DNA from: Ardenticatena maritima
GTDB taxonomy: Bacteria; Chloroflexota; Anaerolineae; Ardenticatenales; Ardenticatenaceae
DNA length: 64,000 bases
Direction: 5' to 3'
Assembly (NCBI RefSeq): GCF_001306175.1
Contig: NZ_LGKN01000004.1
Coordinates: 124,001-188,000, forward strand
The notes below the pieces were generated by a model. It was given only the letters and a program-made list of their open reading frames with translations. It made no database searches and was not told where the DNA came from. Position 1 is the first letter of the stretch; each line of letters begins with the position of its first letter. Positions 48,043-56,450 of this stretch are shown piece by piece. The translations under genes were made by a program, and so were the position numbers.

Positions 48043-48759
48043 ATGACAACACCATTCAAACAGCCCATCGCTCTGGCGATTGCCAACAAAAACGTGATGA
48101 TTGCGAAAGCATTCAAGTATTTTCTCAGCACACAATTTCTGGGAAAAGAGGACACCATCACCATTTACACCGACCTGGAAACACTCGCGGCGGATATCGC
48201 CGAGACGGCTTTTGATATCCTTCTGCTTGACGATTCTTTCACCTTCCCGGAATTGTTTGACTTTCTGAACCTGCTCCAATCCATACGCGAGCCCAACGTC
48301 ATTTTGCTGGCTGACGACGCCCCCATCCACTACGCGCAACTCATCCGCATGGGCGTGCGCGGGATTGTCTCCAAACAAGAGCAACCAAACGTGCTTTTCA
48401 AAGCCATCGAAAAAATCATGCAAGGCGAGGTCTGGTTGGAGCGCCACTTTATGGCAACCATCATCGGGCATATCTCAGGGCGCGCTGAAATGACGCCCTA
48501 CGAACGCGCCCGCTTGCTGATTCAATCCCTCTCGGAACGCGAACGCGAGGTTGTCAATCTCATCTGCCTGGGGTTGAAAAACGAGGAAATCGCCGAGCGG
48601 CTGTTCGTCAGCGAATCAACCGTGCGCCATCATCTTTCGACCATCTACCGCAAATTGAATGTGCGTGATCGCGTCAATTTGGTCATTTTCGCCTACCAGT
48701 ACGGCATGGTGACGATACCGGGCGCTCACGATCAACCTATTGTTCAGATGACACGTTGA
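48043..48759 (+). CDS. NarL/LuxR-family response regulator
   Basis: A 238-residue protein. An N-terminal receiver-like domain (residues 8-125; FDILLLDDSFTFPELF near 58 gives the likely phospho-Asp and GIVSKQEQP near 108 the conserved Lys) is followed by a LuxR helix-turn-helix. The helix-turn-helix region is LSEREREVVNLICLGLKNEE then IAERLFVSESTVRHHLSTIY, near 163-205. It would bind DNA on phosphorylation by a sensor kinase, which is not in the window. AGGAGAGG precedes ATG 48043. It is the only clear transcription factor here; the targets are unknown. Its end overlaps the convergent transporter gene by 23 bases. Confidence 0.9.
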   Translation: MTTPFKQPIALAIANKNVMIAKAFKYFLSTQFLGKEDTITIYTDLETLAADIAETAFDILLLDDSFTFPELFDFLNLLQSIREPNVILLADDAPIHYAQLIRMGVRGIVSKQEQPNVLFKAIEKIMQGEVWLERHFMATIIGHISGRAEMTPYERARLLIQSLSEREREVVNLICLGLKNEEIAERLFVSESTVRHHLSTIYRKLNVRDRVNLVIFAYQYGMVTIPGAHDQPIVQMTR

Positions 48760-49606
48760 CCGCCGGTTGCCAGAAAAAGCGCACGTAAAAACGGCGCAGA
48801 ATGCGCAGCATGGGCGCCGCCAACAAGCTCAGGAGCAGGGCGTTGCCGATAGCGCGCCCCGTATCCCAGACCAGCGACGTCAACAGGTAGAACGCGGCAT
48901 ACCGCTGGACGGTCTCGCGCCATGTGATACCCGGTTCCCAATACATCTCACCACCGCCGACAAAGGGCCAGAAAAAGAGGTTCATCAGGACGCCGTAGAG
49001 GTAGCCCCACACAAACCCAAACAGCACCAACGCCACCACTTCACGCCGCGCCACCAACCGCCCCCGCGCCAAACGGGGGGACACGAAACGCGCCAACCAG
49101 GCCGCCGTCATGCCCATCCAGCCCGTGGCGAACATCTGAAACGGCACCCACGGTCCCATGCCCCCCGTCAGCAATGCGCTGACGAACATCGTCATTGCCC
49201 CCAGCAAGAAGCCAAACCGCGCCCCGAAGACATAGCCCCCTACAATCACCAGCACAAACACAGGCGAAAAGCCGCCAATGTTGAAAACCGACAACAACGC
49301 GTCAAAGAGGCGTAAACTGGCGTTGAACGCTGTCAGAATGCCAAGCAGCGCGACTGTTTTGGTGTTCAAGCCGTCATGTTCCAGTTCCACAAACAGCACC
49401 GCCAACGCCAGCACCACCAGCAACGCCAGCAACAACGGCGCATCTTGCGCGTGGGCGTTCTGCGGACCGGTTTGGGCTATTTCCGGCATGAAAAAGGGCG
49501 CCAGAAACGCGATAACACCCACCAGGCTGACCAGCGCCATCAGCAGCCACCCCACCAGGCGGCTCCCCCACGCGTAAAGCCGCGGATACCGTTCACGCCA
49601 CGCCAT
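48737..49606 (-). CDS. ECF transporter substrate-binding (S) component, probably for cobalamin or precursors
   Basis: A 289-residue membrane protein with about seven to eight hydrophobic segments. The C-terminal 200 residues (NTKTVALLGILTAFNASLRL, FNIGGFSPVFVLVIVGGYVF, GARFGFLLGAMTMFVSALLT) have the S-component pattern, including the Gly/Ala-rich first helix. The N-terminal 65 residues add two extra segments. It is the last gene of the riboswitch-controlled operon that also encodes EcfT, EcfA and cobamide enzymes, so its substrate is most likely cobalamin or cobinamide. AGGGGG lies six bases before ATG 49606, inside the end of cobU. Confidence 0.8.
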   Translation of the reverse strand: MAWRERYPRLYAWGSRLVGWLLMALVSLVGVIAFLAPFFMPEIAQTGPQNAHAQDAPLLLALLVVLALAVLFVELEHDGLNTKTVALLGILTAFNASLRLFDALLSVFNIGGFSPVFVLVIVGGYVFGARFGFLLGAMTMFVSALLTGGMGPWVPFQMFATGWMGMTAAWLARFVSPRLARGRLVARREVVALVLFGFVWGYLYGVLMNLFFWPFVGGGEMYWEPGITWRETVQRYAAFYLLTSLVWDTGRAIGNALLLSLLAAPMLRILRRFYVRFFWQPAVNVSSEQ

Positions 49607-50210
49607 CATCTTCCCCCTCTGGAATTCGCACACCCAGCGCCGAGACTTCCAGCGCATAGCCCGCCACTACCAGCCAGACACGCGCCGCCCGCGCCGCCAA
49701 CCACTGATTGAGCCGCCCCGCCACATCGCGGTAGAGCCGCCCCAGCGGATAGACCGGCACCAGCCCCCCACCCACTTCGTTGCTCACCGCCACCAACGCC
49801 CACGAACGCGCTTGCACCAGCGCCAACACGGCTTCAAGTTCGCGGATTGCCGTTGCCAGCAAAGTAGGTTCATCCGGCGGCGGCTCTTCCATCAGCAGGT
49901 TGGAGAGCCACAGCGTGATACAATCCAGCAAGACGACACTCCCCGGCGGGACGTTGAGCCGCGCGAGCGCCGCCGCCAACTCACGCGGCGCTTCTACCGT
50001 GCGCCACGTCGGCGGACGACGCGCACGGTGGGCGGCAATGCGCGCCTGCATTTCGGCATCGCCCGCTTCGGCCGTCGCCAGATAGACCACGGGCGCATCG
50101 CTGAGCGCCGCCAACTGCTCCGCCAGGCGGCTCTTGCCACTGCGCGCCCCACCCAGAACCAAGGTCAACGTGCCCGGTTGTGGGGGCGGCAACGCCTGCT
50201 TCGTCATCAT
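49593..50210 (-). CDS. cobU: Adenosylcobinamide kinase / adenosylcobinamide-phosphate guanylyltransferase
   Basis: A 205-residue protein. The P-loop GGARSGKSRLAEQLA at residues 20-34, VYLATAEAGDAEM near 44, RIAAHRARRPPTWRTVEAP near 58, and VLLDCITLWLSNLL near 95 are the CobU/CobP signature. It phosphorylates adenosylcobinamide and attaches GMP, preparing it for CobS. Its place between cbiR-like and the S component genes supports salvage rather than de novo synthesis. Two adjacent ATGs (50210 and 50207) overlap the previous stop. Confidence 0.95.
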   Translation of the reverse strand: MMTKQALPPPQPGTLTLVLGGARSGKSRLAEQLAALSDAPVVYLATAEAGDAEMQARIAAHRARRPPTWRTVEAPRELAAALARLNVPPGSVVLLDCITLWLSNLLMEEPPPDEPTLLATAIRELEAVLALVQARSWALVAVSNEVGGGLVPVYPLGRLYRDVAGRLNQWLAARAARVWLVVAGYALEVSALGVRIPEGEDDGVA

Positions 50211-51007
50211 GCCTCCTCTTCCATCAGGTCTTCCGCGCGTATCTGCGCCACCATCCGCGCCAGCACATCACGCGACACCCAAAAATCATCTTCGTACACT
50301 TCCAGCGTGAACACCCCACGCCACCCATGCCGTAGCACACGGCGCACCAGCCGGCGCAAGGCGTGCGCATCGGCTTTGTCGAGCGGTGCATGGTCGCCTT
50401 CGGGGGGAGCGGCGTGGACGTGCATCACCCGCACGCGCGGCCACATCCGCCGCAAAAGCGCCAGCGGGTCGCCGCCCTGTTTCCACACATGCCCCACATC
50501 CAGGCAATAGGCCACGCCGCACGTCTCCACCACGGGCGTGAATGCCTCGCAGGCATAGCGCTCCACGTTTTCGACGCAAATCGGCGCGGGCGCGACAGCC
50601 CGCAGCGCCGCCAGCGCCTCATACGCCCACGCCTGCCATGCGGCTGTGCCCGGCGTCGCTGCTCCTCCGTCCAAATGCACCACCACGGCGCTCAAGGGCA
50701 ACGCAGCGCACCGCCGAAGCAACGCCACCGCCTCGCCCACCGCTTCACGGCGCACAGCCGCCTGATGGTGCACCAGCGCCAAATGGGTGGGAAGGTGCAG
50801 CGAAAACGTCAGGTCGTGCTCGGCGGCAATACGCGCCAGCGCGCGCACCTCGCCGGGCGTGGGATAGTTGCAGAGCCGTCCCGTGTCGAACAAGACGAGT
50901 TCGATATCGTCCACCACGTGGCGCAAGGCGTGCGCATTTTCCACCAAATCACCCGGCACCACATACGACGTACTGCCCAGGCGAAACGGAAAGCGCCGCT
51001 TGCTCAC
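50207..51007 (-). CDS. TIM-barrel isomerase/AP-endonuclease-like protein, candidate cobamide-remodelling hydrolase (CbiR-like)
   Basis: A 266-residue protein of the AP-endonuclease-2/xylose-isomerase-like superfamily. Likely metal ligands are FSLHLPTH near residue 62, VVHLDGG near 103, ICVENVE near 141, YCLDVGH near 162, VMHVHA near 185 and FTLEVYED near 238. CbiR, a cobamide phosphodiesterase described in Akkermansia, belongs to this superfamily and removes the lower nucleotide loop so that CobU and CobS can rebuild the cofactor. The position between cobS and cobU under a B12 riboswitch makes CbiR the best guess. The start is GTG 51007, overlapping the cobS stop; a longer upstream frame is spurious. 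Confidence 0.7.
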   Translation of the reverse strand: MSKRRFPFRLGSTSYVVPGDLVENAHALRHVVDDIELVLFDTGRLCNYPTPGEVRALARIAAEHDLTFSLHLPTHLALVHHQAAVRREAVGEAVALLRRCAALPLSAVVVHLDGGAATPGTAAWQAWAYEALAALRAVAPAPICVENVERYACEAFTPVVETCGVAYCLDVGHVWKQGGDPLALLRRMWPRVRVMHVHAAPPEGDHAPLDKADAHALRRLVRRVLRHGWRGVFTLEVYEDDFWVSRDVLARMVAQIRAEDLMEEEA

Positions 51008-56245: not shown

Positions 56246-56284
56246 GCTTGCTGGCGCAAGGCTCCTTTCCCTTTCCGCGAAGGG

Positions 56285-56410
56285 GACTGGAGCGCAGCAC
56301 GTCGTCGGCGACCTGGCTTATCGGCGAAAGCCGAATCACAGTTGCGGGACAGCGCCGGATTCTCACCGGACTTCCCCGAGCGACGGCTGTGCCTCAGGTG
56401 TTCAGTTGTT
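56285..56410 (-). ncRNA. Cobalamin riboswitch
   Basis: On the minus strand the conserved core reads GGGGAAGTCCGGTGAGAATC, continuing CGGCGCTGTCCCGCAACTGT (56377-56338), and then GATAAGCCAGGTCGCC (56322-56307). These are the canonical B12 aptamer blocks in the correct order. Flanking arms around 56381-56389 and 56293-56302 can close the outer stem. It precedes the B12 capture and salvage operon. Confidence 0.95.
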
Positions 56411-56422
56411 GCCGCGTGTCGG

Positions 56423-56450
56423 AGTATATCGGCGGTCGAAGTGGTGTCAA
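56423..56450 (-). promoter_or_regulatory. Promoter of the riboswitch operon
   Basis: On the minus strand TTGACA (56450-56445), a 16-base spacer and TATACT (56428-56423). Transcription would begin near 56416, just before the aptamer. Confidence 0.8.

What the first reader, a model, noticed from the sequence alone, without database searches (positions are those of the whole stretch)
48737..56450. Riboswitch-controlled B12 operon with a split transcobalamin-like surface receptor
A cobalamin riboswitch precedes eight minus-strand genes. The first two encode a secreted alpha/alpha toroid and a DUF4430 protein, the two domains fused in mammalian intrinsic factor and transcobalamin. Both have surface anchors. 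They are followed by EcfT, double EcfA, CobS, a CbiR-like enzyme, CobU and an S component. This implies a two-part cobamide trap feeding an ECF importer, then removal and replacement of the lower ligand. DUF4430 proteins near ECF genes may have been noted before, but the complete split-receptor plus remodelling operon is striking.
Basis: partly seen in the sequence, partly recalled or inferred. Interest (0 to 1): 0.82.

Follow-up and report, generated by a model that had tools for sequence, protein, structure and literature searches.

The report
Split transcobalamin-like B12 uptake operon
A Chloroflexota bacterium carries a B12-regulated operon whose first two genes are the two halves of the animal vitamin B12 carrier made as separate anchored proteins, next to a B12-type membrane importer and enzymes that swap the vitamin's lower ligand; the idea of such carriers in bacteria dates from 2007, but this split, riboswitch-controlled form, found here across two phyla, seems undescribed and is testable.

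Summary
An AdoCbl riboswitch with promoter and terminator precedes eight tightly packed genes. Gene 1 is a 12-helix alpha/alpha toroid. Gene 2 matches no Pfam DUF4430 model, but its predicted fold matches transcobalamin-type beta domains far better than anything else (Z 10-11 versus 5.7). The pair lies together in 64 of 73 non-redundant loci, is fused in seven, and is accompanied by EcfT, EcfA and an S component whose profile's best solved relative is the B12 transporter CbrT. A cobalamin riboswitch is present in 23 of 26 tested Chloroflexota loci; the same operon shape recurs in Actinomycetota (SCO2321/SCO2322 families). Best explanation: two anchored half-receptors close on a corrinoid and hand it to an ECF importer; CbiR then removes the lower ligand and CobU/CobS rebuild it. 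Corrections: the genome also holds a de novo corrin operon and this is its only CobS, so CobS is not remodelling-specific; the CbiR cassette is joined to the receptor operon only in two genomes of one genus. Burroughs et al. (2007) already proposed toroid plus beta-grasp B12 scavengers in bacteria. Verdict: new variant of a known kind.

The parts
56423..56450 (-). sigma-70-type promoter TTGACA-16-TATACT
   Evidence: 11 of 12 consensus matches; shuffles give 0.2; the same site lies before the relative's riboswitch in L038
56258..56398 (-). AdoCbl riboswitch aptamer (RF01482)
   Evidence: 67.2 bits, E 3.3e-10, full-length model
56209..56246 (-). intrinsic-terminator-like expression platform (ACCTTCTCC...GGGGGAAGGT TTTTT)
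   Evidence: fold and scan; such a hairpin within 160 nt of the aptamer in 15 of 23 relatives versus 23 of 920 random stretches. The simple scan does not list it because its loop is longer than the 8 allowed there
55138..56166 (-). secreted alpha/alpha toroid (TC alpha-domain-like), signal peptide, C-terminal LAETG-TM-KRA anchor
54360..55088 (-). secreted transcobalamin-type beta domain (SCO2322 family, SLBB/DUF4430 fold), C-terminal TM anchor; GTG 55088, alternative ATG 55076
53341..54357 (-). EcfT (CbiQ family) membrane subunit
   Evidence: PF02361 3.1e-11
51737..53344 (-). double EcfA ATPase (two ABC domains in one chain)
   Evidence: TIGR04520/TIGR04521 over cut-off; start
51004..51750 (-). 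CobS, adenosylcobinamide-GDP ribazoletransferase; only CobS in the genome
   Evidence: PF02654 4.3e-49; single genome hit
50207..51007 (-). CbiR, cobamide-remodelling phosphodiesterase (GTG start)
   Evidence: NF041277 241.5 bits, cut-off 105
49593..50210 (-). CobU, cobinamide kinase / guanylyltransferase
   Evidence: PF02283 2.6e-58; NF004469 over cut-off
48737..49609 (-). ECF S component, CbrT-like by profile, with N-terminal membrane extension
   Evidence: PF12822; profile A4 best PDB match 6FNP, E 4.7e-9

Best explanation
This is a corrinoid capture, import and repair operon. When B12 is low the riboswitch lets transcription pass a terminator. The toroid and the beta-domain protein are exported and held at the cell surface; [quoted passage not shown] They deliver it to the CbrT-like S component, which with EcfT and the double EcfA imports it. 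Inside, CbiR hydrolyses unsuitable cobamides, and CobU and CobS rebuild the nucleotide loop with the cell's own lower ligand (CobT is elsewhere in the genome). CobS, and probably CobU, also serve de novo synthesis. Shown here: genes, riboswitch, predicted folds, fusions, conserved neighbours. Inferred: corrinoid binding, assembly, transport and remodelling in this organism.
For: Beta-domain model (pLDDT 93.7): the top 15 aligned PDB entries are haptocorrin, intrinsic factor, transcobalamin and 3u7z, Z 10.2-11.4; the next unrelated entry 5.7 (Foldseek agrees). Toroid model (pLDDT 96.4, 12 helices) aligns with intrinsic factor at Z 21.7, rmsd 2.7, 231 residues; 6 of 26 toroids hit Pfam Cobalamin_bind, best 5.9e-6; the toroid profile hits haptocorrin, E 3.5e-4. 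Both domains in one ORF in 7 distinct loci, in either order; the same toroid family is also with Pfam-recognised DUF4430 domains in other Chloroflexota. S-component profile best match in PDB is 6FNP (4.7e-9; next, folate S, 0.0085); 6FNP is ECF-CbrT, which imports cobalamin and cobinamide (PMC5997447). Cobalamin riboswitch in 23 of 26 loci tested, in 22 just before the toroid ORF. A CobT-CobS-CbiR-CobU run lies between BtuC- and corrinoid-ABC-ATPase-type genes in L204, so the ECF/receptor module stands where a B12 ABC importer stands elsewhere. Separately expressed transcobalamin halves co-elute only with cobalamin (PMC5599065).
Against: No binding or transport data. The toroid fold alone is not specific: terpene cyclases score higher (Z 25). 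Ligand-contact residues and cavity size were not checked (no coordinates available). The beta domain is too divergent for sequence proof: hhalign with DUF4430 gives probability 10% only. Two mid-contig loci (L060, L076) have the beta protein without a toroid found. With a de novo corrin operon in the genome, the need for uptake is not obvious.
Confidence: 0.84

Rival explanations
1. The operon imports cobalt, not cobamides; the extracellular pair binds metal or a cobalt chelate, and the cob genes are there only because cobalt feeds corrin synthesis.
For: EcfT matches Pfam CbiQ 'cobalt transport protein'; cobalamin riboswitches also control cobalt importers (PMC3766115); the beta domain is rich in conserved Cys; the genome makes corrin.
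Against: The S component's profile is nearest to CbrT; only 1 of 26 members hits a CbiM model, weakly. The beta-domain fold matches B12 carriers specifically. CbiR acts on finished cobamides (PMC7733943) and is encoded with the importer.
Confidence: 0.07
2. The toroid is an enzyme (terpene cyclase or glycan hydrolase type) that acts on a surface polymer or lipid, and its link to B12 is indirect.
For: Closest structures are squalene-hopene and drimenyl diphosphate cyclases (Z 25) and the hydrolase MmpH (Z 23.7); Pfam names are Prenyltrans and SQHop_cyclase.
Against: No DxDD acid motif in any of 26 members; secreted and often anchored; fused to or next to a B12-carrier beta domain and under a cobalamin riboswitch.
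Confidence: 0.05
3. The system mainly salvages incomplete corrinoids (cobinamide, cobyric acid) rather than finished cobamides; CbiR plays a side role.
For: ECF-CbrT also takes cobinamide (PMC5997447); CobU and CobS are exactly the enzymes cobinamide needs; most related loci have no CbiR.
Against: The operon here includes CbiR, which is useful only for complete cobamides; animal carriers of this fold bind both complete and incomplete corrinoids (PMC5599065).
Confidence: 0.2

Closest known systems
Transcobalamin / intrinsic factor / haptocorrin (animals)
   Same: alpha6/alpha6 toroid plus beta-grasp domain with a hairpin after the helix; secreted; predicted folds match
   Different: two separate, anchored proteins; feeds a membrane importer rather than an endocytic receptor; no significant sequence match for the beta half
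Bacterial transcobalamin-clade SLBB proteins (Burroughs et al. 2007, PMC1796856)
   Same: toroid plus beta-grasp architecture, surface anchors, operons with CbiO/CbiQ, proposed B12 scavenging
   Different: that clade was reported mainly in low-GC Gram-positives, planctomycetes and euryarchaea, usually in bacteria lacking key B12 synthesis enzymes; the passages read do not mention SCO2321/2322-type proteins, a riboswitch, a CbrT-like S component or CbiR; the present host makes corrin
SCO2321 and SCO2322 NCBIfam families (Actinomycetota)
   Same: same two proteins, same order, followed by EcfT, EcfA and S
   Different: NCBIfam gives no function; window members score below the curated cut-offs; the 12 loci examined lack CbiR
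ECF-CbrT of Lactobacillus delbrueckii (PDB 6FNP)
   Same: ECF importer; S component nearest to CbrT by profile
   Different: here a dedicated module with double EcfA and its own EcfT; S component carries an extra N-terminal membrane region; has an extracellular receptor pair
CbiR of Akkermansia muciniphila (PMC7733943)
   Same: equivalog-level match
   Different: lies inside an ECF uptake operon with CobS and CobU

Membership tests
Transcobalamin-type B12 carrier | alpha6/alpha6 toroid (12 helices) | tested here: met
   12 helices in the model, pLDDT 96.4; intrinsic factor Z 21.7 over 231 residues. The fold is shared with cyclases
Transcobalamin-type B12 carrier | SLBB/DUF4430 beta-grasp domain with beta-hairpin after the helix | tested here: met
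   model order strand-strand-helix-hairpin-strands; top 15 structural matches are this family
Transcobalamin-type B12 carrier | sequence match to Pfam DUF4430 (PF14478) | tested here: not met
   no hit at E up to 10; 1 of 34 relatives at 0.15
Transcobalamin-type B12 carrier | the two domains belong to one unit | tested here: met
   genomic evidence only: fused in 7 distinct loci, together in 64 of 73
Transcobalamin-type B12 carrier | binds cobalamin between the domains | not testable with these tools
   no complex prediction or assay available
Class II terpene cyclase | DxDD acid motif | tested here: not met
   0 of 26 toroids
B12-specific ECF transporter (CbrT type) | S component homologous to CbrT | tested here: met
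   profile hit to 6FNP, E 4.7e-9, best in PDB; the single sequence alone gives no hit
B12-specific ECF transporter (CbrT type) | EcfT and EcfA ATPases present | tested here: met
B12-specific ECF transporter (CbrT type) | transports cobalamin | not testable with these tools
   needs an uptake assay
CbiR cobamide remodelling phosphodiesterase | match over the NCBIfam equivalog cut-off | tested here: met
   241.5 bits against 105
CbiR cobamide remodelling phosphodiesterase | hydrolyses cobamides | not testable with these tools
   needs an enzyme assay
AdoCbl riboswitch | RF01482 aptamer over gathering score | tested here: met
   67.2 bits against 50
AdoCbl riboswitch | responds to adenosylcobalamin | not testable with these tools
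   in-line probing or a reporter is needed

The most novel reading that the evidence does not exclude
Two separately anchored half-receptors, on different kinds of anchor, meet only when a cobamide bridges them, so that ligand-induced assembly itself marks the loaded state that docks on the CbrT-like S component: a receptor-fed ECF transporter, and a prokaryotic system of the type from which the fused animal B12 carriers may descend.
Probability: 0.45. Interest if true: 0.78.

Novelty: new variant of a known kind. Interest (0 to 1): 0.62.

Why it matters
ECF transporters are generally taken to work without a soluble binding protein (own knowledge); here a dedicated ECF importer is conserved together with an extracellular receptor pair in two phyla. 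It suggests a function for two families without one (SCO2321, SCO2322) and offers natural split versions of transcobalamin, useful for testing whether ligand bridges the two halves and how animals came by the fused form. It also ties import to lower-ligand replacement in one regulon, in a bacterium that appears able to make its own corrin.

Tried and rejected
Pfam DUF4430 search of the own genome and of 301 Chloroflexota genomes: none in the own genome, 4 elsewhere, so the Pfam label does not fit. Single-sequence PDB search of the beta protein and of the S component gave nothing useful; profiles or folds were needed. hhalign of the beta profile with 5 DUF4430 domains: E 0.003 but probability 10%, not counted as proof. 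First HMMs built from whole ORFs mixed domains (EcfA ORFs also hit the S model); domain-trimmed profiles A1/A2 were used for the fusion and adjacency counts. The first alignment was too divergent for the genome-contig scan. Cavity measurement and toroid-beta complex prediction were not possible.
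Full report
OBSERVATION. The window lies in a 3.56 Mb genome whose nearest named relative found is a MAG called Ardenticatena sp. (Chloroflexota; L084). An AdoCbl riboswitch is at 56258-56398(-), 67.2 bits. Upstream is TTGACA-16-TATACT at 56450-56423, and downstream a GC-rich hairpin followed by TTTTTT before the first gene. Relatives have a terminator-like hairpin at the same place in 15 of 23 cases, against 23 of 920 random stretches of the same loci. This is the layout of a transcription-terminating OFF switch. 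Eight genes follow with gaps of 49, 2, -4, -14, -4, -4 and -17 nt. Families: toroid, SCO2322-type protein, EcfT, double EcfA, CobS, CbiR, CobU, S component.

GENE 2 IS A TRANSCOBALAMIN BETA DOMAIN BY PREDICTED FOLD, NOT BY PFAM. No Pfam family matches even at E 10. From an alignment of 34 relatives, AlphaFold2 gave pLDDT 93.7. Foldseek's only hit under 0.001 is the human transcobalamin beta domain 5no0, and its first 17 rows are transcobalamin, haptocorrin, intrinsic factor and 3u7z. VIA-align gives Z 10.2-11.4 to 15 such entries and 5.7 to the next. The model has the strand-strand-helix-hairpin order that Burroughs et al. give as the mark of the transcobalamin clade (PMC1796856).

GENE 1 IS A 12-HELIX TOROID. 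pLDDT 96.4. The fold is shared with cyclases (Z 25), prenyltransferases (Z 22-23) and intrinsic factor (Z 21.7, rmsd 2.7, 231 residues), so fold alone does not decide. Six of 26 members match Pfam Cobalamin_bind, best E 5.9e-6, and the profile reaches haptocorrin at 3.5e-4. The DxDD motif of class II cyclases is absent in all 26.

THE TWO ARE ONE UNIT. A search for the SCO2322 family found it in 53 of 400 Chloroflexota genomes, all below the curated cut-off, and in 43 of 296 genomes drawn from the phylum of a MAG labelled Actinomycetota, 9 over the cut-off. Of 73 non-redundant loci, 64 have the toroid adjacent or fused; in four more (L056, L066, L068, L071) both are in the same gene cluster but further apart. 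Single ORFs hold both domains in seven distinct loci, beta-toroid in six and toroid-toroid-beta in L064. In L083 the same toroid family lies in an ORF of the same length and strand as the one that carries a Pfam-recognised DUF4430 domain, and in L078 the order is toroid, DUF4430, EcfT.

THE IMPORTER IS OF THE B12 KIND. The S-component profile (26 members) hits 6FNP at 4.7e-9, the folate S component at 0.0085, and little else. 6FNP is ECF-CbrT, which imports cobalamin and cobinamide (PMC5997447). Cobalamin riboswitches occur in 8 of 9, 8 of 9 and 7 of 8 Chloroflexota loci tested, just before the toroid in 22. In the Actinomycetota set all 12 loci examined have beta protein, EcfT, EcfA and S, and 9 have a toroid; only 3 of 9 tested have a riboswitch hit.

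REMODELLING HALF. CbiR is an equivalog-level match. CbiR over the cut-off occurs in 14 of 350 Chloroflexota genomes; none of the 13 other neighbourhoods examined holds the receptor pair, while the same-genus relative G001 (L038) has the whole operon. In L204 the run adenosyltransferase, CobT, CobS, CbiR, CobU lies between a BtuC-type permease and an ABC ATPase nearest to corrinoid ABC transporter models. So the CobS-CbiR-CobU cassette is linked with two unrelated importers, which is independent support that the receptor/ECF module imports corrinoids.

CORRECTION TO THE REMODELLING STORY. The genome has a corrin synthesis operon on contig 5 (CobA, CbiL, CbiF-CbiG, CbiE/T, CbiD, CbiC, a CbiX-like chelatase, CobB, a further chelatase and CobT) behind a second cobalamin riboswitch, and a third riboswitch before cbiB. 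CobS in the window is the only one. CobS, and probably CobU, therefore finish de novo cobamides as well; only CbiR is specific for remodelling. Completeness of the pathway gene by gene was not established.

MECHANISM. Shown by computation: operon, regulation signals, predicted folds, partnership of the two proteins, kind of importer. Inferred: the halves bind a corrinoid between them; the toroid is held by a sortase-like tail (LAETG here; LPxTG-like tails in 24 of 69 relatives) and the beta protein by a membrane helix (TM-like tail in 63 of 83 relatives); the loaded pair serves the S component; CbiR, CobU and CobS replace the lower ligand. Separately expressed transcobalamin halves assemble only with cobalamin (PMC5599065), so a natural split receptor is plausible.

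NOVELTY. The idea of bacterial toroid plus beta-grasp B12 scavengers in operons with CbiO/CbiQ is from 2007 (PMC1796856). Searches of the open-access library found no paper on SCO2321/2322 function nor on this arrangement; subscription papers were not searchable. What appears new: the divergent beta family, the split arrangement across two phyla under riboswitch control with a CbrT-like S component, and the joining with CbiR.

Noticed in passing
L043:7645-8211, L048:9526-10212(-), L050:7531-8601(-), L087:4246-4827: A second, tandem beta-domain protein in some Chloroflexota loci ends in a PEP-CTERM-like tail (IPEPATLLLLGSGLAGLAGYxRRRR), so paralogues in one operon seem to use different anchors.
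   Followed up: partly
L061, L063, L089, L103, L104, L099 toroid C-termini; window 46748-47860(-): Toroids without TM or LPxTG anchors often end in a tail like YLPLVxR; a similar YMPVVLR stretch follows the signal peptide of a window gene outside the operon. Possibly an unrecognised sorting or anchoring signal.
   Followed up: partly
L144:1555-2130(-) (G000 contig 5): A BioY-like ORF (biotin S component, by eye) lies inside the corrin biosynthesis operon; NCBIfam gave no hit at 1e-10.
   Followed up: no
window 49350-49609(-), S component N-terminus: The S component carries a conserved N-terminal extension of about 80 residues, with an AHxxDAPL motif, before the ECF S domain; it could be the docking site for the receptor pair.
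   Followed up: partly
G000 C5:625284-625428(-) (L147): Third cobalamin riboswitch of the genome, in front of cbiB.
   Followed up: yes
L204 (G158 contig 11): CobT-CobS-CbiR-CobU run lying between BtuC-type and corrinoid-type ABC ATPase genes.
   Followed up: yes
L042:7918-8759, EcfA around 9664-11400: One relative (G005) has its beta protein and EcfA broken into several frames, either decay or assembly errors.
   Followed up: no
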